The notes under the pieces were generated by a model that worked only from the letters and a program-made list of their open reading frames with translations, ran no database searches and had not been told where the DNA came from. A program made the position numbers and the translations under genes. 64,000 bases of DNA from Gracilaria domingensis (Eukaryota; Rhodophyta; Florideophyceae; Gracilariales; Gracilariaceae): contig VCMS01000173.1 in the NCBI GenBank assembly GCA_022539475.1, positions 1 to 64,000 on the forward strand, given 5' to 3'. Shown piece by piece: positions 6,591 to 55,905 of the stretch (position 1 is its first letter; every line of letters starts with the position of its first letter).

Positions 6591-6639
6591 AGATAGTAGC
6601 ATAAATTTATTGTTTATTACATTGTTACCTTTACGTGTT

Positions 6640-34202: not shown

Positions 34203-34945
34203 TGTAGAGCAAAACGCCCTTTGTGGGAATGCACCGAGGTGTCTTTCATAGTTTGTTGATCCGTTACCGGCTTCGACACTTCATGTTATGAGAGGCTACT
34301 GTAGTAGTGGCCCTATTTTGGGGTATGCATAGGAAGAGTAGTGTTTCTGCACACTTGTGCTGAGTTGGCCCGATGCCGGGTGCGCCGTGGCAAGCCTGCC
34401 ACGGTTTCACACGTGTAGGATGTTGGCCGGCAGCGCCGGATAGTTAGATATTTCTAGTTGATATTTTCAAGTGCCCTCGTCTGTGTTCTGCAAAGTGGAA
34501 TATAGTCTGTTCGCTTTGGAAACTAAGCTAGTTTTTGGGCTATTTAGGGCGCGCGAGGGGGTGGCAGAGACTGGCACTCAAAAAATTAAGAAATTTTGGA
34601 ATATTTAATTCCATCTCGCACAGTTTAATTCTTGGGTCTCCTAGTTTTTGTAGAGCTTCTACTTCGCCGCACCACCCCATCCAGTCTTTTCCGTAACCCT
34701 CTCTCAAAACTGCGCTCGTGCTAGTTTGCGTTTCCATTTTCTCCCATGTTGCAATGCCAATCGTAACTCATCTCACCTCAATCATCCCATCATTTCTTCC
34801 CATTCCACACCACCCCCACTCTTTACCCATTTCTCGCCCATCACGCGTTCGCCACCTCCCTCTCCGTCTCCGCAAACGTCATTCTGTAGAAGTCAGGTGG
34901 GCAACTCTCCCCATTCTCGTATACCCGCCTCGCCCCAAAACGGCT

Positions 34946-35874
34946 TCACATCCCTCCCATACTTCTCCCCTCCTGTCCGCTCAGAATCCCCTTCGCAGTC
35001 CGCGCTACCTCCGCAGCACTCCTAAACCCAGTCACCACCGGAGCTCCGACTCCCTCCCGCGGCACCTCCTCCACCACCTTCTTCATCTCCTTACGCCTCT
35101 TCTCCAGACGGCTCTTCCCATCCCAACCCCACCACCCTTTGTCTTCGGTGTTACAGGGGACCCCTTCTGCACCGCCACCCTTCCCGCACTTCCCTTCTCC
35201 GTCTTTCCCTCCACACGTTCTTTCACCGTCTCCTCTTCCACCAATCTTTGCCTCTTGCCCAGCTCCTTCACCTCCTTCTCCAGCACGTCCAACCTCTCGT
35301 TCAGAACCCTATTCTCCTCCCGCAACTCTCCAACCTTCCTTCCCGTACACTCCACTATCCCATACACATGATTCGTCATCTCCACTCCCAATACCGACAA
35401 CGAATTCCGCAGGCTCGAAATCGCCTCAACCAAAACACCACTACCACCCCCACTCAGCACCACAGCACTGATTTCCGTTACAATCTCCACAATTCCATCG
35501 TCCAGTCGCTCCTTCATCACCAACCCCAACATCCCCACCCTCGCCTTCATCTCCCCCACAAACCGCATCTCCCTGTCACCCTCTCCGCCCCCACTCTCTA
35601 TCTGGTCTCCAACCTCGAACTGACTGAGATGCACCGTACCCCTTCTCCCCATTGCGACCCCCTCCACCTCCAATTCCACACCCTTCTCCACCTCATCACC
35701 ATCCCCTCTCCTCGCCTCACACTTCTTTCCTTCATCGGCCACTTCCTTCTTCTGCGACATCCGACCAGCCGCCGTAATCACGTCCTCTTCCCGCTTTGGT
35801 GACCGCGTCGGCGGTACCTCCTTCCCCTCCAACAGCGCCAACAGCTCCTCATCCTTCACGTATCCGTTTGACAT
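34946..35874 (-). pseudogene. Coiled-coil protein, right-arm copy, frameshifted
   Basis: Same protein as 7224-8153, starting at ATG 35874. One G is missing in the GGGGTTGGG(G)ATGGG run near 35116-35122, which shifts the last ~60 codons and ends the frame at 35083. The original stop position is still present at 34946-34948. The shortened protein would lack the basic tail, so function is doubtful, although the coiled coil is intact. Confidence 0.7.
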
Positions 35875-36514
35875 CTTCAGAAGAAGAAGTAGTAGTTGGA
35901 TCGAAGTTTCCGCTGCGATACAGTGCAATCGAGTTAAACTGTGCTGTCGACCCCGACTGTCCAACCACACGGGCTATATCGAGCATCATGATTGTCCCTG
36001 TTTCCCTCATCCCATTTCCCGCCAAAAGATCTACTGTACACCTCCGCACCTTCCACTATTTAAGCGCCACCCCTCTGTCTCCTCTTTCGCGCTCACATAG
36101 TCCCCACCCACCTCGCCTCGACCGGCGATATTTTTCTCTTCCGCCATAACCTCACTCGGTGGTTATGGCAAAACAGGAAGATATCGCCAGTGGAGGCAAG
36201 CTGGGGACTAGTGATTGTACCTAGAGTAGCTCACCCTCCGTCTCGACTGGGGGCATCTTCTTCTTCTGTCACATCCTGTGTGGGTTGTCACAAAAAAAGA
36301 ATATGTCACCACTCGACACCGGATGGGTAACAATGATAGCACGTAGAGTAGTTCATCCTCCCTCTCAGCGTCCACTGGGGATATATTTATGTTCTCTCAC
36401 ATCCTTTCCCGGCTGTGACACAAGAGAAATACATCTCCAATGGAGACGGGGAATATAGTCGTGATAACACGTAAAGGTAACAATGTAATAAACAATAATT
36501 TTATGCTACTATCT

Positions 36515-37213
36515 CTAACCAACCTTTCGAAAACCAGCTATGACATGAGCTGGCCTACTCGAGCCAAAGATAGCAGATCCTGCAACTAAAATGTTTGCAC
36601 CGGCCATCACTACTCCTTTCACAGTACTCAGTCCAATACCCCCATCCACCTGTATCCCTATTCTTGGGTACAACTCCCTTGCATGTCGCACCTTATCAAG
36701 AACACCCTCCACAAACGCCTGTCCTCCAAACCCTGGCTCCACCGTCATCAACAATAACATATCTACAACTCCTTCCTTCATAAGTGCTTCTACGACCTTT
36801 ATAGACGTATTCGGGCGCAACGCAACTCCAACCTGCATTCCCATCCTTTTAATTCGGTTACATAATTCCTTCAACACCACGTTCTCCTCCTCAGTTGGTA
36901 CCTCGCACTTTTCTAGTCCCTTAGCCACACTCTCGATATGAAATGTGACTCCGTCTGGGCCTGCTTATGCAAAGTCGTTTGCCCATCGCCCAGGATCTGA
37001 TACCATCAGATGTCAGTCCAAAAACAATTTTGTATGCCTCCGCAACGCTTTCACAACAGGCGGTCCAACAGTAAGGTTCGCCACAAAATGACCATCCCTT
37101 ACATCTATAGGCAGCCAGTCCGCTCCAGCCTCTTCCATTGCACTCGCTTCACCTGAAAGGCGAGCAAAGTCTGAAGCCAAAATTGATGGCGCTATAAATA
37201 AACGAGAATCCAT
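36515..37213 (-). pseudogene. Ribulose-phosphate 3-epimerase with two nonsense codons
   Basis: The full gene length is present. Start [19 protein letters not shown] is the family N-terminus, [18 protein letters not shown] has the signature (a Met/Asp region near the active site), and MTVEPGFGGQAF and VDGGIG follow. In frame, TGA at 37013-37015 (where HLMV is usually preceded by Cys or similar) and TAA at 36965-36967 interrupt it. The rest has no frameshift. Together with the truncated left copy this means no intact RPE in this window. Confidence 0.9.
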
Positions 37214-37676
37214 ACTGAACATCGGTAACTTCAGCAACCCCAAACCCGTCTCTCCCAGACACACACCTCTTTTATACCTCAATAATAAAGAGTACTATGG
37301 CAATCCGAGTGAAGCTATAGAACCCGTTCACGTCATTTATGAAGCCAAAATGGCTCCTTTTATCCTGTACTCAAGCTCCCCGTAACTCGTACTTTACAAC
37401 TCAGGTTCGAATTCTGTTTCATTCATTGTACACTTTCTACTCTTCCACCTACTTTTCATAAAACATCACCACACTTTGTGGCTTCTCGTCTCATACAAGC
37501 TTTATCATTCTTTCAGTACAATCACATATTATACATTTCGCTCACTTTCACAAGGTGAACCAAGTTCCCGTTCTGCGCTGCCCAACCGTTTGTACTTAAA
37601 TATCACTCTTTACCCCAGCAGTTCTCCGCCCCATCTTCCTTTTTTATCGTCACACAAGAACAATCGAACACTTGCA

Positions 37677-38579
37677 ATGAACTTCCAGTCCGACATGCCT
37701 CCGACTCCGCCTCCGAGTCCCAGATACTCTGACGTCCCTCAGGCCTGATCTCCCACCCAAAGGTCTCGGGCCGTTATTGTTGGAAGGGGGCGTATAGGTA
37801 CCATGCTGGCGAACGAACAAGATATGGTCATTTCCGCACAAGAATTCTGCAGCATGGCTGCTCCCTCTCATCTTTCTGATGTACCGATGCTAGTTTGTGG
37901 AAGAACGAACACCCTGGAGACCGTAATTCAGGCTTGCTCTTATTCGCTCAGAGAGAATCTCGTTTTTTTCCAGAATGGAGACATCATACCATTGCTTTCG
38001 AAGCTCGGTGTGGACAAATGTTCAAAAGTTGTCCTTTACGTTGGTGTCCCCTCAAGAAACGCAGCTCCGCAGGATGGTGTCACTCCTCAAAGTCCGGATG
38101 GTCTCACTGTCGCAACAGGAAAGTGGGCCTCCAACGTTGCAGACAGGTTTAGATGTATGGGTCTCACTTGCGGGGTTGTCGACGAACACACATCTTTCGT
38201 AAGCTATTATGAGAAGCTCGTGTGGCTATCAGCGTTCAACATCGTCGGGGCCTCAAGAGGTTTCATTCCTATGGACGTAGTCGCTACGGAGTGCAGTAAG
38301 GTTGTGCTCACAATAATGAAAGAGCTGTTGAAGATAGTTTCGCTTAAGACAGGTACTACTTTCAACCTGGAAGAGACCGTTGGGCGACTTCTTGCATATG
38401 ATAAAACTCTCGTTGGCTTCCCTACTTCTTTCTCCGACTTTCAGTTTAGGAACGCGTACTTCTACGACTTTTCCCGCCAAGAAAGAGACATCGTAGGCGG
38501 TGACCCCGCTCCTTTTCATACAAACTACGTCAATGTTGTTAAGGAAAAGTTATCTCCCTCCCCATTCCTCCAGCTTTGA
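37677..38579 (+). pseudogene. KPR-like dehydrogenase, right-arm copy with early stop
   Basis: Copy of 4968-5870 with TGA at 37746-37748 in place of a Ser codon, 23 codons after the ATG. The remainder is open to 38579 and could be translated from an internal ATG at 37803, but this would lack the GxGxxG loop (GRGRIG lies just before). Nearly all residues after that match the left copy. Confidence 0.82.
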
Positions 38580-39205
38580 GGTTAGAACACATGACTTTTC
38601 GGTGTTCTGAACCTTTTAGACATAGTTAGACATAAAATTTACTTTATTGAAATGACCTGTTCCTATTACATTACTTATATTGTTCGTCCTTCTGTGGTTC
38701 AAATATGCCCTTTTAAATCCTACATCCCTTATCACTAATACCTGGCTAAGTTTTTGCTAGATGGAAAAGGGTCCTCCCACATCATTAAAGTGCACGATAC
38801 TAGTAACGAGACAAGTACAAAATTGTGATATTTCTGAAGAACTAAGCCTTTGCAATACTTCGGGCACACGTATAATGTAAGGTAAACCTTTTATGGGTTT
38901 CAACCCCTAATGGAGGTTTTCTTACTTTTCTTGATTTCTAAGCTCATGTTGAAGATATTCATAGTTTTCTTTACCCACTTGAGCCCGTACATATAATTTA
39001 TGACTAAATCATCCTCTCTTTACTGCAAATCGATGCAAAAGCTTCTCGTCCTAGTAACGTTTTAAAACAGTACTACAATACCCGTATATGGTCGTTCTTA
39101 GACTCTTTTTATACTACGAAACACCTTGTGAACATCCATCACATCCTTCTCATTCGTATACTCACACCCATTTGCAAAACGAGCCCTTTCGAAAGCTTTC
39201 AAAAC

Positions 39206-39426
39206 ATGTATAAATCAGAAGTTAGAGCCCAAGAAGTAACTCCTCAGCAGCTGGCTAACGAAATATTCGAAAATGGCTAGGCCGTGATTAGTGAAATTTA
39301 TAGTACTCTGAAAAGAGCTGGGGACAACATCCCTGCCGAAACAGTCAAATGCATGAAGTATATCAATGCACGCGTTGGTTTCGGAATTGCTACTGGGCGA
39401 GATATAGAGGATGCCGAGAGTTTCAT
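39206..39426 (+). pseudogene. HAD phosphatase 5' fragment
   Basis: The first ~74 codons of the HAD gene (compare 4340-4120). TAG at 39278-39280 replaces a Tyr codon and the DVDGT motif reads EIYST, so motif I is lost. The fragment is cut at 39426 and joined to the dioxygenase gene in opposite orientation. Confidence 0.85.
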
Positions 39427-41745
39427 GATTGTACCCATTCGAACATCAAGTAAAGCACGCGACCTTACAACCCACCTGAGCTCCTCATTGTCCTCCGCCT
39501 TCTCCACCGTACCCTAACGTGTCGACATCACTCTCCCTTCAAATGGTCCATCGCTACCGTCTTTCCATCCTTCATCATCGTTGATGATTTGAACAAACGA
39601 CTTCTGTTCCTCTCCTTTACGTATATCCGGCATCGCTCCATACTCATTCTCGAAGAAGTCCACCAACTTCCCCGACACATCTCCGAACTCCCGAACTTCT
39701 TCCAACTCCCCCCATTTAGGGACACCATTATCCGTCGCAAAGCCATCAAGCACGCAATATCCATTCTGCCTTAGCTCAGCTTGCATTCGGGCGAAGAACA
39801 TTTGCCCAAATTCGTCATGCTCCTTCGCAGCAACCCACAGCACCTCTTCATCATCCATACCTGTCGGCCGAGTACGAGGATACTGCATACCAAATATCTC
39901 CACCCGTAGGCGATGTTCAGCCCTTGTAGCGTGCCAAAACACAAGATGGTGTACATCTCTGATATTCGAGACACTTAGCAGCTCCAACCTATGTCCCTTC
40001 GGCAAGTGAATGACTCTGAGCCAGGGGTCCTTGTGCTCAATTACGTTCTTCCCTTGCCATTCCTGCGGTCTCAACCTGACATACCCGCACCATGATGGGT
40101 TCAGTGGGCCATCATATGGGTCTCCTCGAAGAAGTCCGTGCTCCTCAGATTCCGGAAGAGCTGTAGGTAACTCGTCATCAAATAACCCCCCACCTGTCTC
40201 TTGCTGATCGTCTGGCGCAGCATCTTTCTCGACGGTGACAACCCGTGGAACTGTCACAGCAAGAAGCTCTTCGTCATCCACAAATGCAGAACTGCCTGCG
40301 TTCTCTGCATTCCCTCCCTCTTCCAATGCCACGAACTGAACCTTCATCGACCTTCCTCTCAGCACATGTTCATTTAGTTGAGACATCAGGTCATCCGGCG
40401 TCATGCTGTTTAGAGTAGATCTCATCTGTTGTGTGAAAGTCTTTCTCTGTTTCTTCCTCGGCGGAGCCCGCTGTTCTTCTTCAGAGCTATCCAGAACTTC
40501 TATGGCACCTCGACTTCGGCCGTGCTCAATTTCCCTATATCTCACCTGCGCCCGTTCTCCTGCACTTCTTCGCGGCTCCCCTTCTTCACTGGCAGATGTT
40601 GCAGCAGCAGCAGCCGGAGTCCTCCTCTTCGTCACGGACTGCTTCACTGGTGCGGGCGGCGGAATTACCTTGAGCATCGTCCGCAATCGATTCTGAACGG
40701 AAGTCGTGGCAGTTCTAATTGAGTTCGTCCTGCTCCGAACACGCGGCAATGTGTTGAAGTTCACAACTTGTCCCAAAAGAAACTGATACACAGCTGCGTT
40801 GTTGTCTGGGTCTTCAACGTCATCTTCATTCGATGGAGCAGAAAGACTGACTTCGCGTTTGAGGAACACTACCATGGACTCTTCCTCGTTCAGTTAATTC
40901 CTCACTGCTCGAGCCGCGCGGGACAGAGACACTGCTCTATCATAAAAGAAACCTCGAACCTCCTCAAAGCTTTTCCATTGCTTCGTCTTCGTCGACTTGC
41001 CCTTCAATAGAAACATCTGAAGACAGTCAAGAATGAAGGAAAACTCCTCGGCATCCAAAACATATAGCGGAGTATGGGACAGATGCGTGAGACCTATGTC
41101 ACTCACAGTCTCACATATATCCTCGAAATGGGCCAGCATTCCCTCACGAGACATGAGTTGCAGGGCAACATTGGCATATCTCAGATACTGACGCTCTTGC
41201 ACAGTCCCAATCAGTTGGCTCTCCTTCAACACTTCTGTCACTTCTGCAGGATCCACGTCTGCCGGCGTCACCCCCTCAACATCTTCAATTAGAATGGCGA
41301 CCACACTAACTATAGAGTGTATCTTGTCTGCAAACATCATCCTTCGCATGGTACTCCTCGACTCATTGAAGTACGAAGCAACACATAACAATTCCTTCAT
41401 CCCAATGGGCCTCCCATCTCTTCGTATAAGCAGATTGCAACGCCAAAACTTGGCTAATCGTTTCCACTTCGGTGCACCAGTCGCTGCCAAATATTGTATA
41501 GCTTTCAGACGATGCAAACCATCTACAAGGAAGCACTTCCTCGTTAGGCGTCCCTTTTCAGTATCCCTCTCTCCCGTAGCAGCATCTTGTAAGGCCATCA
41601 CTGGAGATCCAATCGAATGCAATATCCCCCGCTCCTCCATACTCTTCACAAGGGCTTCAACGTGGCGTTTACTTACTCCACGGAGTAATATACTGGATGC
41701 AACGCCGATAGCCCGGCGGCCGCCCCTGGCGCAGCAATACCTAAG
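39427..41745 (-). pseudogene. ParB-like domain followed by 2OG-Fe(II) dioxygenase, truncated
   Basis: Reading from 41745 down, a ParB/Srx-like domain comes first: SILLRGVSKRHVEALVKSME, ERGILHSIG, then FLVDGLHRLKAIQYL, where the GLHR corresponds to the GxxR box of ParB-type NTP-binding/nuclease folds. A helical region follows to AVRN, then TAA at about 40891-40893 (GAA in the left copy), and the same frame continues into the dioxygenase. A second stop (TAG for TGG) lies at 39514-39516, and the gene is cut at 39427 before the HxD motif, so this copy is catalytically dead. No in-frame ATG lies between 41638 and 41785, so the true 5' end may be spliced or lost. The left copy breaks near the same place by indels, so either a fusion decayed twice or these are two adjacent genes. 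Confidence 0.72.
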
Positions 41746-42535
41746 AGCGCCATCGATAGCAGTCTTTCGTAGTCTAGTGGTAAGCTATGAAACAACTTGT
41801 AACTTTCAGTAAACTAATCTTTACTAGAGGGTAGGTGTGGTGCGCGTGGGAATTAGGGAGCGTTTTAGGGATGGAGAAGACGGGATGGTGCACTGAGGTG
41901 ACGCGGTGGGTGCCGGAAGTGCCGGGAGAAGTGTTTTGGGAGGTCTCCGGAGGGTGCCAGAATGTGGCCAGAACGTGCCCGCGGGCGGGGGGGGGTCGGT
42001 CGTGTTAGGGTAGGTACCCTAACACCACCGGACCCCCCCGCCCGCTGGCACAAAATCGCACATTTTTCAAAAAATCGCCCAAAACGTGCCCGCGGGCGGG
42101 GGGTCCGGTCGTGTTAGGATACCTACCCTAACACGACCGACCACCCCCCCCCCCCCCCCCCCCGCCGGTGGGCACGTTCTGGTCACATTCTGGCACCCTC
42201 CGGAGACCTCCCAAAACACTCCTCCCGGCACTTCCGGCAGTGATTTCGCTGCACACGCCGTTCACATATATCAAACTAGAGAAAACTAGCGCTTCACACC
42301 CACTTGGTCCGCGACTATTAGCACCATACGCGACCTTTGCAATAGCTCCGAATCGCGACGTGGCCGATACGCGACGCTATCGCACCCGCTCAAAGCGGCA
42401 TGGACACCGACCTCAGAAGGGATCGGACAGGGACACGGATGAGACTGGCAGTGCGCTCGGAGGAGCTGCCGAAAGCGGGGGTGCCCAGCGTAAGTCGCCA
42501 TTTAAAGGCTCGCCTCCGTTCTCTGCGCTGAAGCG
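41746..42535. promoter_or_regulatory. Divergent intergenic region between ParB-2OG and methyltransferase-SET genes
   Basis: The only space between two divergently transcribed genes of the putative element, so both promoters should be here. It is dominated by the nested inverted repeat described next. No TATA box can be assigned with confidence. Confidence 0.4.
41917..42243. repeat. Nested GC-rich inverted repeat with two internal palindromes
   Basis: An outer pair of arms, GTGCCGGGAGAAGTGTTTTG near 41929-41948 and its complement near 42215-42235, continues inward through GGAGGTCTCCGGAGGGTGCCA and ACGTGCCCGC. Each arm contains its own palindrome, GTGTTAGGGTAGGTACCCTAACAC around 42003-42026 and CGTGTTAGGATACCTACCCTAACACG around 42110-42137, each flanked by G-rich and C-rich runs (one C-run of ~22 at 42146-42163). 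So three levels of symmetry share one centre near 42065-42085. It could be two abutting element termini or a symmetric bidirectional promoter. Confidence 0.8.
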
Positions 42536-45500
42536 ATGGATTCCACCGATGATGGAGAAGAGACACATCCTATCGACATGAGTGCTCCGCCTTCGGCGTT
42601 CCATGCATATGTCAGACTTTTCTTGGTTCTTCGCGATGCTTTGGCAAACAGCGATGGAGGCCCTGATCGGCCGCGGGACGTGGGGTTTAGAGGGCTAATA
42701 GAGTTCTGCGCCGAGACCTATAAGGATATTCCGGAGGAAAGGAAGATATTTGAGGAGGCCACTAACTCCAATAACCTGCAGAACTTGACACTGCAACAGC
42801 TGCGAAAGAGTGTTATGAATAACAAACCTGTAGAGCAACGATATCTTGTGACGAAGCTTCTTGACAAGAAGGACGGGGATGAGGACCAGAGACTCCGCGA
42901 TTATTTCCTTCTCTCTATGGATATGGGTATATACCTACCGGTGCGATGCCTGGTTGGTTATTTCATGACCAGGAGAAAGCAGTTTCTGAAGACGACAGTG
43001 TTCATCCCACCAATAGCTGCGAACCCATTTGAGATCGTTCTATACTTATCATACCTCGGCCACATAATGGGAGAGAACGACAACATCAGAATGATGAAGA
43101 AGAAACAACCGAAAAAGAAACGAAAAGTGAACCATGCACCATCTGTGTACATACCAACTTTTACGTCGTTCTCCAAAGACAACTGTGATCGACTGGGATT
43201 CGCTATCAGTGAGATCGTATGGGCATGAAGTTGTTTTGCGGCTCATCTTGGATACACGAACGTTCAGCACATGGTGAAACCATACATTTACATGAATATG
43301 CAGACCTTGAAGTATACAGCGTTAGAGACACGGAAGTCTGGTTATGCCCCGCCAAGCCATAGTACTCGATTCAACACACAGGATGTCCCAAAGAGCAGTA
43401 CTAGTGGATCGGTGGAGACCTTGAGTGATGAATGCGATACAAACCTCCGAATACTGGCTAAGGAATTTTTGACAGACCTCGAAATTATATGCACCCACGA
43501 TAGCCTCTATAGCTTACGGGTTGATCAGATGACAGACTGGATAGAGTTTTCGGAGATACGGATGGATACCGTATCTGGTTCTGACTCCGGTGAGTTGCCT
43601 GCTCGGTTTCAGAAGTTTTCGGAGTTGCTATGGAAACCAATACAGGATATGCGTCATGCGGCAGGGTTCCATGTCGGCATTCACGGGAAACCCGATATTG
43701 AACTGACGAAAACTCCTAAAACTTCCGGTAATGCCGAACCTTCTTCGACCAAGTCTGCCCCACCCCCACCTCGTCGAGAGTATATGGACCTCGTGAGCTC
43801 CGATAGCGACGACTTTGAGAAGCCGGTGAATCGTGCGGAGCATGAATCTCGGGTTGCCGGGTACAACATCCAAAAGACTGGTATTGAGCCGCCCGTGAAG
43901 GGGATATCCAGTCTCCTTCGAATGAATATGGACAAGGTGTGGAAGGGGATGAGAAAGTCACACTTTGTAGCGTACAACTGTGACATGAAGGACCTGAGGC
44001 AAACATATGAAACATTTGTGAATCAGAGTGAGATTTTATGGGGTGAGGCCCAGCTTGTCCTAACAGACCCTCCCTTTAACACTCGAAGGAAGAGGAGCAA
44101 ACGGAATAGTGCTCATGATGTCTTCAGTGAGGATGACATGATGAGTACGGCAGACTTAATAAGTTCCGCGCTTCGGTCAGGTGGGCACTTCATTTGATTC
44201 TGTGCCATGGCACAGTTTCATGTTTGGCAGAGGATACTCTCGGAAACGGCGAGTACGAAAGATGAAGCTGGAAGCGAAGGTAAGCCAGAACTCATGCCTC
44301 CGTTTAAAGTGGATGGGAATCCTCTGGTGTTCATCCGGGATCGACGCAATGTTGGCGTGAATCCACGGAAGTTTGGGATACAGCCCGTAACGGAATACGC
44401 CGTTCATGGGGTGAAGCGTGGATTGCGACCATCGGAGGAAGCCAGTCTTACTCCATTTGAGGAGAACAATTTCATTCCTTCTACTTTCCCAGCTAACAGG
44501 AATGTAATTGACCGGGTGCCGAAACCGAGTGCGGGGGAGTGGTTGACATGGAAGGTAAATGAGCCAGGTAATTCAGTACCAAGTGGGCAGTACATAAGAC
44601 CGGAGCAGAAGTCCAGGGAGTTGATGAAAGAGTTGATATGTCGGTTCACAAGACCGGGTGATCTTGTCATTGACATGTTCGCGGGAACTTTTTCTACGGG
44701 TGTGGCGTGCCTATCGCTGACAAAGCATAGAAAGTTCTTGGGGTGCGAGAAGAATAGGCCATGTTTCAGCCATGCGAAGCACCATATAACGACTCTCATG
44801 GCCGAAGTTCTTCGCGGGGGGAAGAATGACATCGTGGTTGAACAGGAGGTGGTGGATGCTGCTTCAACGACTTATGAACGGGTTCCACACCAGGATCGAG
44901 GTGGGCTTGAATGGAAGTCTCCATTTGGATACCCCCAGTACCAAGTGATGCCTGCACATATTTCTCAGTTCCTAGGAAGATACTGGAGGGGCTGGGAGTT
45001 TGTCGACAAGTGTGGGCAGCATACTGTAGATCTTTGTGACGAGAAGTACCGAGGAGCTCTGAATCTAATGGATATGCATATGCTGTTGACTGTTGAAGCC
45101 AATCGCTATCGCTTACATGTAGCATCTTCTAAGATTCGACATCCCCGTGCTGGTATGGGGGTGTTCATGGAACATAAGATATTGGCTGGGGAAACTATCT
45201 GCCATTTTTATGGAACTTTGGTATACACGGATCTGACAAACCGGAAGGAAAGGCACTTAACGTATGGAAGTGGCTGTCTCGGAGCAACTCCAGTGCGGTA
45301 CAAGTTGTTTTCTATGATGGCCACTGTGACTGGTTCGGAGTTTCTGCACCTGAGGAACAGACCAGGACAGGCTCAAGATAGAAAGGAGAGCAAAGTCTAC
45401 ATTGTCCCGGCGCCTTTTTGTATCGGGGGCTACATTAACGACGCCGGATATCATGCCGGGGATCCCGATTTATCGCAGCCCCGGTAGAACATGACTCGAA

Positions 45501-45673
45501 GTGCCAATGTGCAGATGGTGGAAGCGAAGTCCGTGATACAGTTTAAGTCCGACCTTTCTAACTATGCTCTACTTCGTTGTAGAGCAGTAAGAGATATTGA
45601 GAGGGGCGAAGAGTTGTATTTCAACTACGGAGAGCAGTACGTCTGGGACTGGGCTCTGACAGTGGAGCAATAG
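42536..45673 (+). pseudogene. Beta-class DNA methyltransferase fused to SET domain, three in-frame stops
   Basis: One frame of 1045 codons from ATG 42536 to TAG, broken only by TGA at 43226, TGA at 44195 and TAG at 45485. Codons 1-~480 are unknown with a basic patch (KKKQPKKKRKV, a likely nuclear signal). At ~511 comes LVLTDPPFNTR, the DPPF catalytic motif IV of N6-adenine (some N4-cytosine) methyltransferases, and GGHFI-stop-FCAMAQFHVW follows. At ~713 comes PGDLVIDMFAGTFSTGVACL, motif I that binds AdoMet. Motif IV before I defines beta-class enzymes such as CcrM. From ~870 a SET domain follows: RAGMGVF, GETICHFYGTLVYTD, GYINDAGY and RAVRDIERGEELYFNYG. Stops are most simply decay. The pairing of a bacterial-type DNA methyltransferase and a histone-lysine-methyltransferase fold in one chain is highly unusual. 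Confidence 0.85.
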
Positions 45674-45923
45674 ATGAGTGCAGTACCGAATAGAAAATAA
45701 ATATGCTTGTGAATGTTGCAGCTGGCTGCTATACGCGTTGTACATGTACAATGGAGCTCTTCATCTATTTGTAACGGCGATACTTGCGACCCATTGGGCA
45801 CCTCAAATTCCTAAAAAGCAGGAACTGCGGAGTCTCCCGGAATATCTGAACCACGCACCCCCCCCCCCACCCCCTCCCCCCCCCCCAACAATTTCGTTTC
45901 ATTACCCCGTTTATCTCCACGAC

Positions 45924-46800
45924 ATGGGTATAACGCCGAGAAAGCGAAATAGTACGCAGCGGAACAAGAGTGGACAGAAGAAGAGAAGAGCATCGGATGA
46001 TACGAATCATGCTACAAGCACCGCACTTCCTAAACGGAAGTCGTCTACGACGAAGGAGAGAGTCAGTGGGCGTCTTTCTACAGTGCTCTCTCGCCCATCT
46101 CGCAGCGGAGTGTCTTCCGGGATTGCGTCAAGAATTCGTGGATGAGCGAACGACGTCGTGCCGTCAACTTCCTATAATGCATATCCTGCATCTGTCTCTG
46201 CTCCCAAGAAGATGAGGTAACTCGGCCCAGCGGGTCAGGACAGGAGGGCATGACAACTGGAACTGAAGAGGTTCGTATGACACCAAAACTTTCACGTCCC
46301 CGGCCGATATCGAAGAGCGGAGCTACTGGGGCGCGGGTTACGCCGCCCAGTGGATCTGGACAACAAGGGAAAATGACGAGAAGTCGTGAGAACCCTAATA
46401 TATTAAGATCGTCACGTCCCTCTCTGTCTTCTAGAACTGGGGCCGCTATGAATCGTATTATGCCCGCAATGGGTCCGGACAAGGGAGAAAGACAATAAGA
46501 AATCGAGAGACGACTGATAGGCGAGTTACTCCTCGACCTTCTCCTCTTTCCAGAACGGGGGCCGTTGCAGCTCGTACGAGGCTCAGTTCATCTGATATAC
46601 GATGACATGGAGGAGGACAGACACGGGAGTTGGAGCTCGGAGCCGTGCCAAGGGTGGACACAGAACGCCTGCAGCCTCTCGTGTCTAAGGGTATGGCACA
46701 TGAGGATAGTTCCGATAACAAAATAACATCGAATCCTGCGGCATTACCGGGGCTTTTCGCCGAAGAGCTAGGAAAATACCGGAAGATATCCACACTGGTG
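45924..46800 (+). pseudogene. Basic Ser/Arg-rich 5' part of the next gene, frameshifted
   Basis: ATG at 45924 starts GITPRKRNSTQRNKSGQKKR, a basic, Ser/Thr/Arg-rich disordered frame. It stops at 46145 and similar composition continues in two other frames (46250-46496, then about 46498-46600) before returning to the first frame that leads into 46815-48236. The likely reading is one gene with several indels, encoding a disordered basic N-terminus that could bind nucleic acid. A C/G-run (45857-45888) lies just upstream. Confidence 0.45.
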
Positions 46801-46814
46801 TGAATTCAACCTCT

Positions 46815-48236
46815 ATGAACAGACATGATCTTTTCAATGAACTGAATTGCTTGAAAGAAAAGGTTAAGACGCTACAAGAGGACTTGATGGTTCGGGGAAT
46901 TCTAGTGAAGGTCGCCCAAGAGCAGAGTACGGCTTTGAAAAAGAGGCTTGAAGAGAAGGATCTAGTCATTGAAGGGCTAAGAGGGGCACTGAAACAGGAG
47001 GGAGATAGGAGTACACGTGCTGGTGAACCTGGGCAGACAGGTCGAAAGAAGCATAAAATTGAGGTGTGCGACGAGTTTCGAGGGGTTGCTCGAGCAGTGT
47101 ATCACAACATGCTGACGTCGGCAAGGAAAGAAACAAGTGAGCTATGGCTCGAAGGTGAGTCGCTCACCCGAAATTGGGGTAACCGTGCCGAGAAGGTGGA
47201 AGATGTAACTGAGAGTGGGGAAGGGCTTATTGAGCCGGAGAAAGGTGGTTCATACATGGTTCCTAAAAACCCCGTGGAGCTCTTGGGCAGTTTTGGCATG
47301 TTCACAACCTCCGTAGAGCTGGGGCCAGATGCTTTGCTGAAGAAAATGGTTGAAAGCGAGTTGAAGGAGTTGAGCTGGGAAGGTATTAGAAAAGCATCTC
47401 TTACCGACAGGTGTATACTGGAACTTTGTGCAGATATATGCCTTAGGCAGAGATTGCGGCAAACCATGAGTGACGTCGTTGGCGTTCGGAACAGAAATAC
47501 GAGGGATAAACTATTTCTGCTCCTGGGGTACGATCTGATTTGGAGAAGAACAAAGCTGGTAGAAGAGAATGCTGACGAACTCACAATGCAGTTGAAGGAA
47601 GCGCAGGAGAACATACTGCGTCTCGACGAAAATGGTGTACCGAACACTTCATGGTGGAGAAAAGCCCTATTTGTTCGTCTAAAGTACTCCAATGCGGACA
47701 ATGTCGAGGATATGCCGACGGAAGATCAAGACTTGTTCTTCCAAAATCGTGTCGGGGTAAAAGTACTGAAGGAGTTTATTGGGTATGATGTGGAAGACAA
47801 GGATATGGGCACCTTTTTAGATGGCACAATACTGTTGCTCGCACGTTTGGACGCTTGGGTGTTGACGGTTGTGAGCCTTCTAAGTACGGATGTGTTAAGA
47901 GGTGGGCAGAGACAGAAACTGTTTACAAAGAAGTTTTCCCAACTGCTACCTCTGTGTTTAAAGAATGTTCTGGGGGATGTTAGGCAACATGTCTTGAAGA
48001 CCAATTCCAGCGAGTTTCATAATTATGGAACGACAACGGAAGGTTGGACTAAGGTTCTTGGTAATGACATGAGAGAGACTACATTTGGTTATCGAATGCC
48101 GTCGAACGGAAGACTTTACCTCACTGTGAAAGAACAATTTTTTATTGACAGTGTGAGCCGAAGATTGGGGTCTATTAGCGATTGTTTGTTGGTGAATGCG
48201 AGGAAGGGGATATGGAGTTCAAGTAAATGGACATGA
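46815..48236 (+). CDS. Unknown element-associated protein with N-terminal coiled coil
   Basis: 473 residues from ATG 46815, probably the 3' part of a longer gene starting at 45924. The first ~65 residues form a coiled coil (NELNCLKEKVKTLQEDL; LKKRLEEKDLVIEGL). A second globular region runs to the end, with RGVARAVYHNMLTSARKE, LTDRCILELCADICL and TVKEQFFIDSVSRRLGSI. No family was recognised. It lies between the methyltransferase-SET gene (same strand) and the convergent transposase, which suggests that it belongs to the same element, perhaps as a DNA-binding or accessory transposition protein. The frame is uninterrupted for 1.4 kb, unlike its neighbours. Confidence 0.55.
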   Translation: MNRHDLFNELNCLKEKVKTLQEDLMVRGILVKVAQEQSTALKKRLEEKDLVIEGLRGALKQEGDRSTRAGEPGQTGRKKHKIEVCDEFRGVARAVYHNMLTSARKETSELWLEGESLTRNWGNRAEKVEDVTESGEGLIEPEKGGSYMVPKNPVELLGSFGMFTTSVELGPDALLKKMVESELKELSWEGIRKASLTDRCILELCADICLRQRLRQTMSDVVGVRNRNTRDKLFLLLGYDLIWRRTKLVEENADELTMQLKEAQENILRLDENGVPNTSWWRKALFVRLKYSNADNVEDMPTEDQDLFFQNRVGVKVLKEFIGYDVEDKDMGTFLDGTILLLARLDAWVLTVVSLLSTDVLRGGQRQKLFTKKFSQLLPLCLKNVLGDVRQHVLKTNSSEFHNYGTTTEGWTKVLGNDMRETTFGYRMPSNGRLYLTVKEQFFIDSVSRRLGSISDCLLVNARKGIWSSSKWT

Positions 48237-48305
48237 ACGATTTCGGAAGTAGCACAGGATCACAAGAAAAGGCACCACAAGGTGATCGTGCAGAAGATGG
48301 AGCCC

Positions 48306-51300
48306 TTAATGTTTAAGGCTGTACAAGATCAACGTGCTCAGTTGGTCCTTCATCTGAATCATGATAGAATCGATTGATGTAGAATCGGTGTTGAAACCAT
48401 TGAAGTGGAGGACAAAAAGGTGGAGCAGGGTAGTTTGATCGAACAACATGGACAGTTCCCTGTAGTGCAGAAGCCGAACCATCCCGTACCAAGGAGTTAA
48501 CTCTACGATAGTCTCCGCTTTGGAATGACGAGGGAACGGAAGAGTGTGGTTCTTTCCATCGTTTGTAGCCCACCGTAAAGATATGCATTTTAATATGTGG
48601 TCGATGTTTGTTGCGGGGGGTAAAACCTCGAAATACCGGACGAATGCCACCTCTGGTGCGGTAAGTGCAGAATCATGGAGAGATATTCGATTCAGAGCGA
48701 CTACCTGGGCAACCCAAGTCTCTGAATCTTCTCCGCTTACAAATACAGTGGAACTTTTTGGCTTTCTACTGGGACCAAATGCTGGAGAAGAAGACTCGTT
48801 GGATGATGGGGTATTTGGGTCGTCCCAGCTTAAATGCTTTAGAAGACGAATCGGAGTGTTTAAGAGTCGGAACGAAATCGCCTTTCACGAGGGCCGAATT
48901 CACCAGAGTTATTCTTGTCTTTTCTGGGAAGTTGTAATAGAGTGCTCATCCAGTGTTTCTTTCACGAGACTGAGGAAAGGAGGAAGGGCCTGTTCACCAA
49001 TTTGGTCAAGAATCGACCTTGTGTCCGTACTTGAGAACATCTCTCTAACAGAAGTCCAATGTTTTTGAACTGCAAATACTTGAAACACAATGTTGAAGAG
49101 CTCGTGAAGTGAAAGAACGCCCTCTCATTGCAAATCGAGGGAGCTGTGTGGAAGTTCCTGGTAAACCTGGATTACGCTGGTAAGGAGTATTGCCATTCCA
49201 TTGCTTTCTAACATGTCCGTGCTCAATGGAGCGAATAGTCTCCTCCACAGCCGTTGCTGTTCTTCTGGACGTCTTTTTGTAGTGTCTCTTAAATAGCAGG
49301 TGTGCATGTTCGTATATGCCTGCGTCGTAGTACTTGATACTTCCCAGACGGCGAATATCGTCCACGAGATGATCGAGAATATGAAACTTCAGAGTTCCCA
49401 GTCTGGAGGGATGAAAATCCGCCAGAGTCTTTGTTGCGGAACGCTTGAAGGCTTCAATCTCCGAACTAAGACACAGGAGAGAGCTTTCAGTCCAATACGG
49501 GTCACGATTGTATCTGAATAAGGTCGAGAGCAAGTCCGAATACTGAGAGAAAACGGTTGTGATTGGGGCAACGTCCTGTTCTCCACAGCATATGTCAAAG
49601 AATGCTCCTATGAAGGGAAAGACCATGTCAAGTGCTTTGTAGTTTTTGGCCTCCAGCATTCCACGGAGACCGTCTTTCGTGAAGATACCATTCAAAGATT
49701 TGCCTTTCTCCTGCGTGGAGAAATCGATATGTAAACCTTTGGCAGGAGAATCGCGTTCTATGGCAGCTAGAATTGCGTTTGCATGGTTGAGGAGTTGGGT
49801 GCGTATCGTTCGAAATGAACGCGATGCAGATGTTCCTAATGTGGTGCACAGGGTGTCTGACTGCAGTCTCTCGATTGTGGCCGTTTTTATCAACTTTGAG
49901 ATGCCGAGATGCAAGTTGTGTAATGGTTCGAATGAGAACAGACTGTATGGAGACAATCCCGGGATCATTCCAAGGCTTACGGAAGTTTCGAGGAACGAAG
50001 GAATGAGAGATATGGAATTTGAACGCATCAGAGTATCCGCTTGAGATCTCCTCTCCCTCGCACGACGTGGACGTCTTTCCGCCTCGTCTTTTTGTGCATG
50101 TTGCAAGATAGCTGTGTATGTCTTTCGGATGCTTTTCGTGTGCTTTTGAGAACGTCCGTTGAATGAGGTGGGAATAGGACTGCATAAAGATGAGCGAGGG
50201 GCTTTGCATCTATGACACGGGCTTTCCGTTTTGGTCCCATGAAGAATGGACAGAATGTCCTTAGCCTCAGGAATATCCGCACAATAACTTGCAAGCAGAG
50301 GATGGCACACTCGACTTAGTTTGTCTTCGCCGATGAACTGAAAACCTTTCTGCGTGAGATTTAGAATGGGCTCCAGGACTTGACGAAGAGATTCTTGAAG
50401 GATTTGCATCCTGGACTCGCGTAGAGACTTGCTAGAAACAAATGGCATTGCGTCTGCTTCAGATGCGGAAACCTCGATCAGTGTGGTAGGGAAGTATGCC
50501 ACTACTGTGAGGTCATCACGGATACACTTACGGCGAAGCTGGTCGGAGAAGTTGAGAAATATGAGGTGAAGAGGATAGGCGGTAACCGATGTTTGCTTTA
50601 GAGTTGTTGAAGACTTATCGGTGTATACCTGCAGAAGACCTACGAAAGATTCACTGTAACTTATTTCTTGGGAGTACCACACTATTCTACTATCCAAAGA
50701 GCCCATGACCATTTCCTTAAGTTTTGAGGTGGCGTCTCTTGCGAGAGAGCCGGACATGGGGTGAGATATTTTCGTGGAGTGGGTCTGAGGTATAGGGTGG
50801 AAGAATGTGTTTTCGTTGTTAGCCAACTGGAGCTGTTTCACAAGTGTCTGAACGGGGTCTCTCGTGTAGAGGGTGGCGCTGAACTTACATCCTTCTGGCG
50901 AGACAGTTCTGCGATTGAAACCGTCCTTTGAGGCGTATCGTTCGAAAATGGCCTTCTTCAGTTCTGTACAGCGCTTGGAACTTGTTATGGTCTCGTTGAA
51001 TCGCTTTTGCGAGAATCGCGGGTCCCGAAGTAGCCCAATTAGCTCGTCCGCCTCACGATGACCAAGGTTGGAGCTACTGAAGCCAGACAAACCGTGAGAT
51101 AATCCATATGCAAATCACCGAGGGCCTCCTCAGAAGGCACTGGGCCGGAACTGCTTCCGTGTTCTCGCTCTAATGACGCGGCAGCCGGGGAAGGAGAAAC
51201 ACAATGCAAAGTGTCCGGAATGGAGGGGCGCACGGAGTGGGGTCGACGATGTCCTCGGACACTGGAGGCTCGGGAAGGCGACAAGGGGCAGTGACCGTTT

Positions 51301-51486
51301 CGGAAGATGCGGGCGCGGGTGCGGAAAGCTTGAGACGCTTGCTTCTCCGAATGGGCCGGCTATTGTCGTCTTCCAGCGCTGCTTTCAGACGAAACGGGCA
51401 ATGGTTGACATGCTGTTGAAGGGATAAGACTCCTCGGCGAGTAACGAAGGGGCACCCACGCTTCTTATGTGTACAGTAGTAGACCA
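48306..51486 (-). pseudogene. Plavaka-like (CACTA/Tnp2-related) transposase, frameshifted
   Basis: From ATG 51486 a C2HC-type finger (YYCTHKKRGCPF, then QQHVNHC) and a basic region are followed, after two frame changes near 51200 and 51090, by the 670-codon core to 49045. The core has YTDKSSTTLKQTSVTAYPLH and FLNFSDQLRRK, matching the catalytic start of Plavaka transposases of fungi, then a CxxC (SPCHRCKA), FSFEPLHNLHLGISK around the middle catalytic region, and LGTLKFHILDHLVDDIRRLG with YDAGIYEHAHLLFKRHYKK, the C-terminal catalytic block. After a shift near 49090 the C-terminus continues to about 48306 (FSSTDTRSILDQIGEQALPP, later LTPWYGMVRLLHYRELSM). Element ends were not found. No frame is fully intact, so it is inactive. 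Confidence 0.72.
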
Positions 51487-51850
51487 TGGGAAGAAGAACT
51501 GAACGAGAAACGACGACAAAGACTGCAAGGGAAGGGCGTCCGAAGGGAGAAGGAGGTCGAGCGACAGTCAATATCGACGTGTTGCTCAGAACGGAGAATA
51601 TATTTTGAGTTTAAATCACGTGCTTTCGTTCAAAAAGGAACGTAGGTACACGTCGACCTCAACACAAGGGTGTACTTCTCGTATTATCTACCACTAGTTA
51701 TAAACCTGTGGTTTCCCAACGTTGTACGCTGTACACTTGTCCAATCTCGCACAGAAAAATAAATCTCTTCCCTTCGCCGCCGCCGCCGCGCCTCCGACGT
51801 CCGAACTTCCGTTACCGTCGTGAGCCATGCCATCGATATCATCGCGTTAT

Positions 51851-51936
51851 ACTCCGCTCCGTCGTACTTTTTCCCGCCCTCCACTTTATGGAGGCTCCAT
51901 AAAGTAGAGGGCGGAAGAAAGTAGGACGGAGTCATC
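51851..51936. repeat. ~86-bp palindrome upstream of the transposase gene
   Basis: CCGCTCCGTCGTACTTTTTC...CTCCACTTTATGGAG pairs with CTCCATAAAGTAGAGGGCGG...AAAGTAGGACGGAGTC around a centre near 51892. Few mismatches. It can form a long hairpin or cruciform and may mark the end of a mobile element. Confidence 0.75.
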
Positions 51937-52210
51937 CGTATCTCAGGGATGTATTCCGTGCAGTCTTTTCGTACGTTCTCCCATATCCTTCCACGTATCT
52001 TTGCTCTAAACTAACCAATCCTCACCGCGTTTCTTCGCGCTCTGCGACATGGAAACGGCAGGAAATAAGCTAATCACCCTCAACTTCTTCTATTTGTTCA
52101 AGATATAGAACGAGTTGAAGGGTGAAAACGGGAACCCGGTAACCCAAACCGACGACTGTAAGTACGCGACCAATAGTTCATTTCGTTGCGCCATAGGCTC
52201 TAGCTCTGCC

Positions 52211-52549
52211 TGTTCGGGATAGGCGATTCTGGTCCTTGGTTGAGACATAGGTTTCTGTCTCGTTTATCGCATCTTGCGGTATGTTTGCTGCATGGGCATT
52301 CTCGGTGTCGTTGCTTGTGAGTTCTTGCTTCGAGACCTTTCGCGTTTTACGATGAATGGTGGGCTGGTAATCTAACCGATCACTTTCCTTCTTCTTCTTC
52401 TTTTGCGAGTTACTAGGTCCCTCGACTTTTCTAGCGCAACGTTTCTGTTTTGCTTTATCAATGGTACGTTCCATCGCAATTCAAATGTTTCCAACGGAGC
52501 ATTGACTAACCTATGGATACTTTCTGCTTGCGTATACAGGTAAACGACC
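52211..52549. repeat. Direct repeat unit A (~340 bp)
   Basis: Starts TGTTCGGGATAGGCGATTCTGG and ends near CGTATACAGGTAAACGAC. A second copy lies at 52624-52962. On the minus strand each unit starts a small basic frame with ERTIDK(A/T)KQKRCARKVEGP from ATGs at 52474 and 52889. Whether that peptide is made is unknown. Confidence 0.75.
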
Positions 52550-52613
52550 AATTTTATTTCATCTCTCCAGATCCATCATCGATCTTGAGAGACAAAATGA
52601 AATTGGTCGTTTT
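52542..52613. repeat. Hairpin between the direct repeats
   Basis: AAACGACCAATTTTATTTCATCTCTC pairs with GAGAGACAAAATGAAATTGGTCGTTT around a ~20-base loop containing ATCCATCATCGATC. Its left arm begins exactly at the end of repeat unit A, so it may be a small inserted element (MITE) or the cause of the duplication. Confidence 0.7.
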
Positions 52614-52623
52614 ACTGTCTGAC

Positions 52624-52962
52624 TGTTCGGGATAGGCGATTCTGGTACTTGTTTGGGATATAGGCTAGATTCTCGTTTATCGCGTCTTGCGGTATGTTTG
52701 CTGCATGGGCATTCTCGGTGTCCTTGGTTGTGAGTTCTCGCTTCGACACCTTTCGCGGTTTACGATGATATGGTCGGCTGGTAATCTAACCGATCCCTTT
52801 CCTGCTTCTTCTTCCGTATGCGAGTTACCAGGTCCCTCGACTTTTCTAGCGCAACGTTTCTGTTTCGTTTTATCAATGGTACGTTCCATCGCATTTCAAA
52901 TGTATCTAACGGATCATTGACTAACTTATGGATACTTTCTGCTTGCGTATACAGGTAAATGA
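52624..52962. repeat. Direct repeat unit B (~340 bp)
   Basis: Second copy of unit A with scattered substitutions and small indels (by eye over 90 percent similar). The small minus-strand frame in this copy is changed by indels after ~25 codons, so it is not preserved as protein. Confidence 0.75.
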
Positions 52963-53000
52963 CTTTTGATGCGGACGTAGCTCACGAGTTGCAGGTGCAG

Positions 53001-53160
53001 GTTCCTCAAGTAGGGAACCATGCATCTGGGCATGGTTCCCTACATGAGGAACGGAGAGGATGAGGCGCTTCGCGCCTCATCCTCTCGGAGTGCGTATGTG
53101 TTCTACCGATCCAGCACTATGGTGAAGGTGCAGTCTGCGGCATCTGCCGCAGATTGCGCC
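53001..53160. repeat. Three consecutive hairpins
   Basis: GTTCCTCAAGTAGGGAACCATGC with GCATGGTTCCCTACATGAGGAAC (53001-53052), GAGGATGAGGCGCTTCGCGCCTCATCCTC (53056-53084, perfect) and GGTGCAGTCTGCGGCATCTGCCGCAGATTGCGCC (53128-53160). They follow one another within 160 bases directly before the Ty3/gypsy relic. Role unknown. Confidence 0.78.
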
Positions 53161-53162
53161 TA

Positions 53163-53575
53163 CACCCGCTCCATTATGGGGAAATGGTACCTGTAATATA
53201 GCGAAGTAGTGGTTAGCAAAAGCGGTCGATAGAAGAATAGATACGAATAAAACGGTATGATTTCATAATGGGGATCATCTGTACTAGCACTAGTATTCCA
53301 TGCGTTGCAGGGTATCATTCCGCAGAAGGTATCGTGTAATGTGCACCTCAATGGAAACTGAACCTAGACTTCGCGAAATACGGTTCAGGTAGCCCTCGAC
53401 TAAAGAACTAGCACGAGTGGAAAACCCCCCAGTATTTACTCCACAGAGATTCTGGACGACCCAAGCAATTATCTGCAAATTTTGAAATAATTGATCTCGA
53501 TATTTTTTCAAAAAATTTACTGGACGACCCTTGCCAATTTCTGGACGACCCTCGCCAAAAACTAGCATCTGCAAG
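53163..53575. other. Non-coding stretch with repeated CTGGACGACCC
   Basis: CTGGACGACCC occurs three times (about 53452, 53521 and 53541), ending just where the RNase H domain of the gypsy relic stops. The rest (53163-53450) shows no gene. Confidence 0.55.
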
Positions 53576-55648: not shown

Positions 55649-55905
55649 AACCATAAACTGTTTAGACAAGCCAAGGTCAGCGTAAACCTTGTAGTTACGC
55701 TTGGCCTTGACCATAACCTGATCCGGGATACGGCGATTTCTATACCGCACCCACGGTCGACGCAGAACACCAAAGTGTCTCGAGTTCACGTCGGATTCAG
55801 CCGATTTCCTAGTAAGGATCTTGACTGGGAAGCGAGGCGATGACGCCTCGGGCGCCACACTCCTCGACTCTGTGGGCGTCCCTCCGTTCGGGGAGACTCC
55901 CAAAA

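What the first reader, a model, noticed from the sequence alone, without database searches (positions are those of the whole stretch)
42536..45673. DNA methyltransferase (beta class, DPPF) and SET domain in a single eukaryotic reading frame
Seen: TDPPF at codon ~511, DMFAGTFSTG at ~713, and a SET core (GMGVF, GEELYFNYG) from ~870, all in one frame across three stops. Known: motif IV before motif I defines beta-class amino-methyltransferases of bacteria and phages; SET domains methylate protein lysines. Inference: the protein could write a DNA mark (N6-adenine, or N4-cytosine) and a histone mark together, a self-contained silencing or self-marking enzyme. Bdelloid rotifers use a captured bacterial N4C methyltransferase with a chromodomain, so a SET fusion would be a different design.
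Basis: partly seen in the sequence, partly recalled or inferred. Interest (0 to 1): 0.93.

Follow-up and report, generated by a model that had tools for sequence, protein, structure and literature searches.

The report
Transposon-borne DNA-methylase–SET fusion enzyme
A probably red algal genome holds many copies of a large jumping gene whose protein joins a bacterial-type DNA-methylating enzyme to a SET (histone-methylating type) domain, so one mobile element may write two kinds of epigenetic mark; the copy in this window is a decayed one.

Summary
Window 42536-45673 (+) is one frame with a beta-order amino-methyltransferase (motif IV TDPPF, then motif I FAGTFSTG) followed by a SET domain, broken by three stops. 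It is a dead copy of a high-copy gene: 9 of 18 fetched copies from the same 77.9-Mb genome have an uninterrupted 1055-codon frame, and in the one scanned both Pfam domains pass their cut-offs. The gene is cargo of a 19.1-kb DNA transposon (34478-53584) with a Plavaka transposase and defined ends (572 left, 546 right end sites); a 2-bp target duplication shows on 9 of 9 short copies but on only 1 of 10 long ones. The fusion recurs in deeply diverged families of the same genome: 14 copies in one open frame; 22 of 75 such SET copies have a convergent Plavaka match downstream, against 0-1 of 75 in other arrangements. A divergent partner gene looks like ParB plus 2OG-dioxygenase (weak evidence). 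No C5-methyltransferase match was found. Best reading: a nuclear, transposon-encoded writer of an N6-adenine mark and a lysine mark on element copies. Activity and target are untested. SET-bearing and TET-bearing transposons are in print; this fusion was not noticed in the listings of my paper searches.

The parts
34478..53584 (.). Whole transposon copy, 19,107 bp, ends CGTCTGT...ACAGACG (7-bp perfect inverted ends, imperfect beyond)
   Evidence: End sequences shared by 19 copies with unlike flanks; coordinates; end counts. No matching 2-bp duplication at this copy.
42536..45673 (+). Decayed MTase-SET gene, 1045 codons, in-frame stops at 43226, 44195, 45485
   Evidence: intact relatives
43109..43129 (+). 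PKKKRKV, same letters as the classic nuclear localisation signal (recalled motif)
   Evidence: present in 9 of 9 intact copies
44051..44764 (+). N6_N4_Mtase domain (PF01555); motif IV TDPPF at 44063, motif I FAGTFSTG at 44678
   Evidence: intact copy
45152..45631 (+). SET domain (PF00856)
   Evidence: placed by position from L009; GMGVF at 45152 and GEELYFNYG at 45605
41911..42239 (.). Long near-palindrome between the two divergent genes (82% over a 344-column self-inverse alignment; an 85-nt arm pair at 95%)
   Evidence: folding of 41900-42260 as DNA z-score -24.4, 0 of 100 shuffles as good; inverted matches to it in 17 of 18 fetched copies, (the 18th, L010, ends before it)
39428..41784 (-). 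Remnant of the divergent partner gene (ParB-like region plus putative 2OG-dioxygenase), broken and truncated here; intact 1308-aa frame in L080:278-4201 (-)
   Evidence: PHROG ParB-like E 7.9e-4 on L009's partner frame; no Pfam match for the dioxygenase part
37749..38579 (+). Cargo ORF with GRGRIGTMLA near its start, function not assigned
   Evidence: no Pfam, NCBIfam or PHROG match for its 340-aa relative at 4971-5990
35083..35973 (-). Cargo ORF, 296 aa, looks coiled-coil-like by eye
   Evidence: its 342-aa relative at 7125-8150 had one Pfam hit below cut-off and no PHROG match
46719..48236 (+). Cargo ORF downstream of the MTase-SET gene, 505 aa, coiled-coil-like by eye, no convincing family
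49045..51114 (-). Plavaka transposase fragment (PF18759, E 3.8e-19); many frames of 1100 aa elsewhere at 98-99% identity

Best explanation
The gene is cargo of a 19.1-kb Plavaka-superfamily cut-and-paste DNA transposon that has multiplied to hundreds of end-bearing copies in a eukaryotic, probably red algal, genome. It encodes a protein of about 1045 aa: a long N-terminal part of unknown fold with a nuclear-localisation-like signal, a beta-class amino-methyltransferase of phage/bacterial type, and a C-terminal SET domain. Shown by sequence: the fusion is open in many copies, lies inside the element, and recurs in deeply diverged families, many of them beside a Plavaka transposase. Inferred: the methyltransferase puts N6-methyladenine on the element's DNA, and the SET domain methylates a lysine of nearby histone (or of the transposase), so that the element sets the chromatin and methylation state of its own copies. 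The divergently transcribed ParB/dioxygenase-like gene would be the opposing eraser. The likeliest benefit is escape from, or control of, host silencing, possibly coupled to when transposase may act.
For: Both domains above cut-off in one intact frame. Nine intact 1055-codon frames among 18 fetched copies. Copies: 99 matches at 77-100% identity, 98 of 718 first-look candidates scored. Element ends: 572 and 546 sites with up to one mismatch, reversed-pattern controls 0. 2-bp duplications at 9 of 9 copies of 10.2-10.8 kb, a length reported for fungal Plavaka in PMC12730594. A short copy (L078+L079) keeps both ends and transposase sequence and lacks the MTase-SET gene. Fusion in other families: of 75 SET copies outside the window family, 32 have a methyltransferase match upstream within 2.5 kb on the same strand, 26 in register, 14 in one open frame. 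Of the same 75, 22 have a Plavaka match on the opposite strand 4.7-7.2 kb downstream; the three other arrangements give 1, 0 and 1 of 75. pN/pS 0.44 over 36 pairs of 9 intact copies, 0.36 in the MTase part and 0.41 in SET. Nuclear signal in 9 of 9. No PF00145 match in the genome while the control rang in 10 of 14.
Against: No biochemical, expression or methylation data. The window family has YIND where canonical SET has NH (recalled), so activity is not certain; the C382 family has YINH. One of nine intact copies lacks the exact TDPPFN, one lacks FAGTFSTG and two lack GEELYFNYG. Only 1 of 10 element copies of 11 kb or more, the class that holds the MTase-SET gene, shows a matching duplication, so transposition of the full element as one unit is inferred from shared ends and short copies. 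pN/pS comes from closely related copies and was not tested for significance. Of the 75 SET copies, 43 had no methyltransferase match within reach and 53 no Plavaka match in that place; the lists are capped at 150 and 123 scored matches. C382 has no Plavaka match among the 123 scored, and its PF01555 match covers only profile 80-217, so motif IV was not seen there.
Confidence: 0.55

Rival explanations
1. Only the DNA-methyltransferase half is a working enzyme; the SET fold has become a binding or targeting module.
For: YIND in place of NH in the window family, and no cysteine-rich post-SET after GEELYFNYG (both SET features recalled). The SET score is modest (E 3.4e-7).
Against: GMGVF, YGT and the C-terminal NY are shared with the C382 SET; pN/pS in SET is below that of the N-terminal part (0.41 against 0.52, untested difference); the deep C382 relative keeps YINH.
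Confidence: 0.25
2. The protein controls transposition itself: methylating the element's DNA gates transposase binding or timing, as Dam methylation does for some bacterial transposons (recalled), and the SET domain modifies the transposase or chromatin at the break.
For: The same order with a convergent Plavaka match recurs in diverged families (22 of 75); a long palindrome lies between the divergent genes.
Against: Copies of 10.2-10.8 kb share both ends and show duplications, and the one read in full lacks the MTase-SET gene, so it need not be encoded in cis.
Confidence: 0.2
3. The enzyme serves self-silencing or a host role (host-adopted marking of repeats, as the rotifer N4CMT marks transposons).
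For: PMC8885841 (passages) describes a captured amino-methyltransferase that marks and helps to silence transposons; this genome shows no PF00145 match.
Against: The family is multi-copy and the copies followed here lie in the transposon; no single-copy version was noticed, but not each listed match was placed in an element and only 150 of 328 candidates were scored.
Confidence: 0.15
4. Artefact: two neighbouring genes or chance motifs read across stops.
For: Three stops in the window copy.
Against: Nine uninterrupted copies and 14 copies of other families with both domains in one open frame.
Confidence: 0.01

Closest known systems
Fungal Plavaka DNA transposons, some with TET/JBP dioxygenase (Kojima 2025, PMC12730594; abstract, sections 4 and 20 and passages read)
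   Same: Plavaka transposase; 2-bp target duplications (on the short copies here); cargo enzyme acting on epigenetic marks
   Different: Cargo here is MTase-SET plus a ParB/dioxygenase-like gene; termini CGTCTGT..ACAGACG, not TGT..ACA or CATCA..TGATG; host is not a fungus as far as I can tell
SET-bearing HarbingerS and MuDR transposons of Phytophthora (named in the introduction of PMC12730594; originals not read)
   Same: A SET histone-methyltransferase gene carried by a DNA transposon
   Different: Different transposase superfamilies; no fusion to a DNA methyltransferase is mentioned in that introduction
Bdelloid rotifer N4CMT (PMC8885841, passages read)
   Same: Bacterial-type amino-methyltransferase in a eukaryote without C5-methyltransferases, joined to a chromatin module
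   Different: SPPY motif and chromodomain reader there; TDPPF and SET here; host gene there, transposon gene here
Phage DNA methyltransferases of PHROG 67
   Same: Best PHROG match of the methyltransferase part, E 2e-22; the 15 phage records listed of 106 match at 24-28% identity
   Different: No match to the SET part; prokaryotic viruses
Plavaka giant repeats of Amoebidium (PMC11244446, passages read)
   Same: Very large, gene-rich repeats flanked by a Plavaka transposase in a protist
   Different: Tyrosine recombinase cargo is named there, not MTase-SET
DIRS retrotransposons with a Dam-like methyltransferase domain (recalled, not looked up)
   Same: Eukaryotic mobile element carrying an adenine-methyltransferase-like domain
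   Different: Retroelement, other methyltransferase class, no SET

Membership tests
Beta-class amino-methyltransferase (PF01555) | Profile match above cut-off over most of the domain | tested here: met
   E 4.5e-15, 2-215 of 221
Beta-class amino-methyltransferase (PF01555) | Motif IV before motif I | tested here: met
   codons 510 and 715
Beta-class amino-methyltransferase (PF01555) | DNA methylation activity and target base | not testable with these tools
   TDPPF favours N6-adenine by the rule in PMC8885841 (passages)
SET lysine methyltransferase (PF00856) | Profile match above cut-off over the whole domain | tested here: met
   E 3.4e-7, 1-105 of 105
SET lysine methyltransferase (PF00856) | NH of the active-site motif (recalled) | tested here: not met
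   YIND in the window family, YINH in the C382 family; so called a SET-fold domain, with activity open
SET lysine methyltransferase (PF00856) | Lysine methylation | not testable with these tools
   none
Plavaka DNA transposon | Plavaka transposase in the element | tested here: met
   E 3.8e-19; 1100-aa frames elsewhere
Plavaka DNA transposon | 2- or 3-bp target duplication | tested here: inconclusive
   2 bp at 9 of 9 copies of 10.2-10.8 kb, 1 of 10 of 11 kb or more
Plavaka DNA transposon | Termini TGT..ACA (A) or CATCA..TGATG (B) | tested here: not met
   CGTCTGT..ACAGACG; those termini were described for fungal families, so I call this Plavaka-type by its transposase and not a member of PlavakaA or B
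TET/JBP dioxygenase (PF12851), for the partner gene | Profile match | tested here: inconclusive
   no match in the genome, but no control rang either; putative HxD..H..R motif read by eye (recalled signature)
Bdelloid N4CMT | SPPY motif and chromodomain | tested here: not met
   TDPPF; the Pfam scan up to E 5 lists no chromodomain

The most novel reading that the evidence does not exclude
One polypeptide of a mobile element writes a DNA base mark and a histone mark at the same site, with the opposing eraser encoded back to back from a shared palindromic promoter: a portable, self-marking epigenetic system in a lineage that may lack 5-methylcytosine and whose epigenome may have been colonised by adenine-methylating transposons.
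Probability: 0.35. Interest if true: 0.93.

Novelty: new variant of a known kind. Interest (0 to 1): 0.8.

Why it matters
Transposons with a histone-methylating or a methylcytosine-oxidising enzyme are in print, but a DNA writer and a SET domain joined in one transposon protein was not noticed in the searches made. Because the fusion is kept across deeply diverged families, the coupling itself is likely useful to the element. It makes a long-standing question testable: do mobile elements install and enforce their own epigenetic marks, and can a bacterial-type base mark spread in a eukaryote this way? The high copy number and near-identical transposases make native long-read methylation calling in the alga a direct test.

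Tried and rejected
Chance or artefact of reading across stops: rejected by nine uninterrupted copies. Two genes with a spurious join: rejected for this genome by in-frame copies in several families. Viral or prokaryotic origin of the whole protein: no relative in viral contigs, none for the dioxygenase part, none in genome contigs; these scans use short peptides of one protein and find close relatives only. In phages and plasmids no record covered 80% of the query; the rows listed (15 of 106 and 10 of 21 records) match only the methyltransferase part, at 24-28% and 24-44% identity. Solved structures: the methyltransferase part hit DpnA and CcrM, the SET part MLL-type chains only at E 0.16 to 0.9; the C382 SET gave nothing significant; the partner gene nothing useful.

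Paper searches; on the subject itself 44, 49, 52, 93 and 96 (the last found no paper). Most listed papers were seen as listings only; passages or sections were read of PMC12730594, PMC11244446, PMC8885841 and PMC10388701.

Why long copies lack duplications was not solved: mis-joined long repeats in the assembly, or recombination between copies, would both do it.

A first count of neighbours used rows chosen by hand: 129 of 150 methyltransferase rows with 51 SET rows, and 63 of 123 Plavaka rows with 38 SET rows, giving 22 of 38. That choice was biased. One search repeats it with all 150 methyltransferase rows, all 123 Plavaka rows and the 75 SET rows that stand above the first row I took for the window family (a boundary set by eye); the report uses.

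Full report
What was checked. The frame at 42536-45673 is as described: TDPPF, FAGTFSTG, GMGVF and GEELYFNYG in one frame with three internal stops. In pieces the window copy gives PF01555 at 1.7e-11 and a SET tail just below cut-off.

It is a repeat. A search of the window's own genome (77,892,253 bases, 680 contigs) with window 44201-45484 gave 99 matches at 77-100% identity, the window included; the two C49 rows look like pieces of one copy; 98 of 718 first-look candidates were scored. Of 18 copies fetched, 9 have the full 1055-codon frame from stop to stop, with ATG at codon 11. In one of these, L009:4894-8058, PF01555 covers 516-753 (E 4.5e-15) and SET covers 883-1042 (E 3.4e-7), both above cut-off. 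PHROG 67, phage DNA methyltransferases, matches at 2e-22. The nine copies are 96.8-99.9% alike in DNA; pN/pS over their 36 pairs is 0.44 overall, 0.36 in the MTase part, 0.41 in SET, 0.52 in the N-terminal part and 0.55 in the linker; the main motifs are kept letter for letter in 7 to 9 of 9. No significance test was made.

The element. Comparing copies gave sharp ends. The left end begins CGTCTGTGTTCTGCAAAGTGG, the right end finishes CATCTGCAAGAGACAGACG. The left 18-mer occurs 572 times and the right 19-mer 546 times with up to one mismatch, the reversed controls 0. In the window the element is 34478-53584, 19,107 bp. Of 19 copies with both flanks read, 10 show a 2-bp duplication: 9 of 9 copies of 10.2-10.8 kb and 1 of 10 longer ones, the window copy not among them. 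Kojima reports 2-bp, or 2- to 3-bp, duplications for fungal Plavaka lineages (PMC12730594, section 20). One short copy (L078+L079) keeps both ends, the palindrome and transposase sequence and lacks the MTase-SET gene; I take the short class as deletion derivatives, having read one in full. The missing duplications of the long copies are a result against a simple picture; assembly mis-joins or recombination are possible and untested.

Its other genes. Reading left to right, and using both copies in the window: an unassigned ORF at 35083-35973, an ORF with GRGRIG, a HAD-type hydrolase (6.1e-5, above cut-off, at 2471-3412 in the second, inverted copy that fills 68-8580), a leftward gene with an intact 1308-aa frame elsewhere (L080), the MTase-SET gene, another unassigned ORF, and a leftward Plavaka transposase (3.8e-19; many 1100-aa frames at 98-99% identity). 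The partner protein matches ParB-like phage families weakly (7.9e-4) and GmrSD_N below cut-off. Its C-terminal part has LHTDFSG, GDVTHAGA and LVRYH, which I read as the HxD..H..R signature of 2OG-iron dioxygenases (recalled); no library supports it. Between the two divergent genes lies a near-palindrome at 41911-42239; the stretch 41900-42260 folds with a z-score of -24.4.

The fusion is old. PF01555 finds further methyltransferase families in the genome (150 of 328 candidates scored). On contig C382 three copies hold PF01555 and SET in one frame of 1169-1170 codons; that SET is 29% identical to the window family's and has YINH. Searching with it listed 150 SET matches, the three on C382 at 95-100% and the others at 31-40% identity to it. 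I took the 75 rows above the first window-family-like row. Of these 75, 32 have a methyltransferase match upstream on the same strand within 2.5 kb, 26 in register and 14 in one open frame: C12 (1118 codons), C157 (1121), C6, C61, C161, C442, C149, C109, C293, C42, C525 and the three on C382. The other 43 had no such match in the capped list. Of the same 75, 22 have a Plavaka match on the opposite strand downstream, 20 of them at 4.66-5.00 kb and two at 5.04 and 7.16 kb; opposite upstream, same-strand downstream and same-strand upstream give 1, 0 and 1 of 75. That is the gene order of the window element. The best-scoring Plavaka matches of these contigs cover another part of the profile (about 106-317) than the window family's (about 41-272), which suggests a second, diverged transposase family. 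C382 shows no Plavaka match among the 123 scored. Some contigs may be duplicate assemblies of one locus, so counts are of rows, not of independent insertions.

Host. Other window genes, a protein kinase, a fatty-acid hydroxylase, a mitochondrial ribosomal protein S23 and a TIR-NB-ARC protein, are eukaryotic. I did not identify the species by a search. The size is close to the 78 Mb given for Gracilaria domingensis (PMC10388701, passages); red algal origin is likely and not proven. No PF00145 match was found in the genome, so 5-methylcytosine may be missing, as C5-methyltransferases are in bdelloid rotifers.

How it probably works. The protein carries PKKKRKV (9 of 9 intact copies), so it probably enters the nucleus. 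TDPPF is nearer the N6-adenine form DPPY than SPPY (PMC8885841, passages). The SET domain keeps motifs of the cofactor and tyrosine sites but has YIND, so its activity is likely, not sure. The simplest joint reading is a writer of two marks on element chromatin, with the divergent gene as eraser. Whether this protects the element, silences it, or times transposition cannot be told from sequence.

What is known. SET genes in HarbingerS and MuDR of Phytophthora, and TET/JBP genes in Plavaka and ten other transposon lineages of fungi, are in print (PMC12730594). Rotifers use an amino-methyltransferase with a chromodomain (PMC8885841). A search for papers holding Plavaka, methyltransferase and SET domain gave that one paper only, and a five-term search gave none; the library holds open-licence papers only, so a description elsewhere, for example in Repbase, is possible.

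Verdict. Real, well supported as a sequence feature, a new variant of transposon-encoded epigenetic enzymes, with a bold functional reading that is testable.

Noticed in passing
window 68-8580 and 34489-40938: Second copy of the same element's left half lies inverted in the window, 93-97% alike, running to the contig start; several end sites lie 5-14 kb from a contig start, so contigs may often break inside this element.
   Followed up: partly
window 20368-22758 (-): A TIR plus NB-ARC protein (797 aa, Pfam NB-ARC 2.9e-25 and TIR_2 6.1e-17), the layout of plant resistance proteins (recalled), in a probable red alga.
   Followed up: no
window 41911-42239: Near-palindrome with GTGTTAGGGTA..TACCCTAACAC cores that look like facing telomere-type repeats (by eye); several inverted blocks of it occur in other copies.
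   Followed up: partly
G000 C382, C12, C157, C6 (positions): Further, deeply diverged MTase-SET families in the same genome; C382 has three copies, SET 95-100% alike, and no scored Plavaka partner.
   Followed up: partly
window 2471-3412 (+) and 3468-4538 (-): A HAD-type hydrolase ORF and, by eye, a similar second one beside it within the element, perhaps metabolic cargo.
   Followed up: no
window 30343-32418 (-): DDE_1 transposase ORF of 692 aa, uninterrupted (Pfam 1.2e-10).
   Followed up: no
window 53408-57900 (-): ORFs that look by eye like a broken Ty3/gypsy-type retrotransposon, just right of the element.
   Followed up: no
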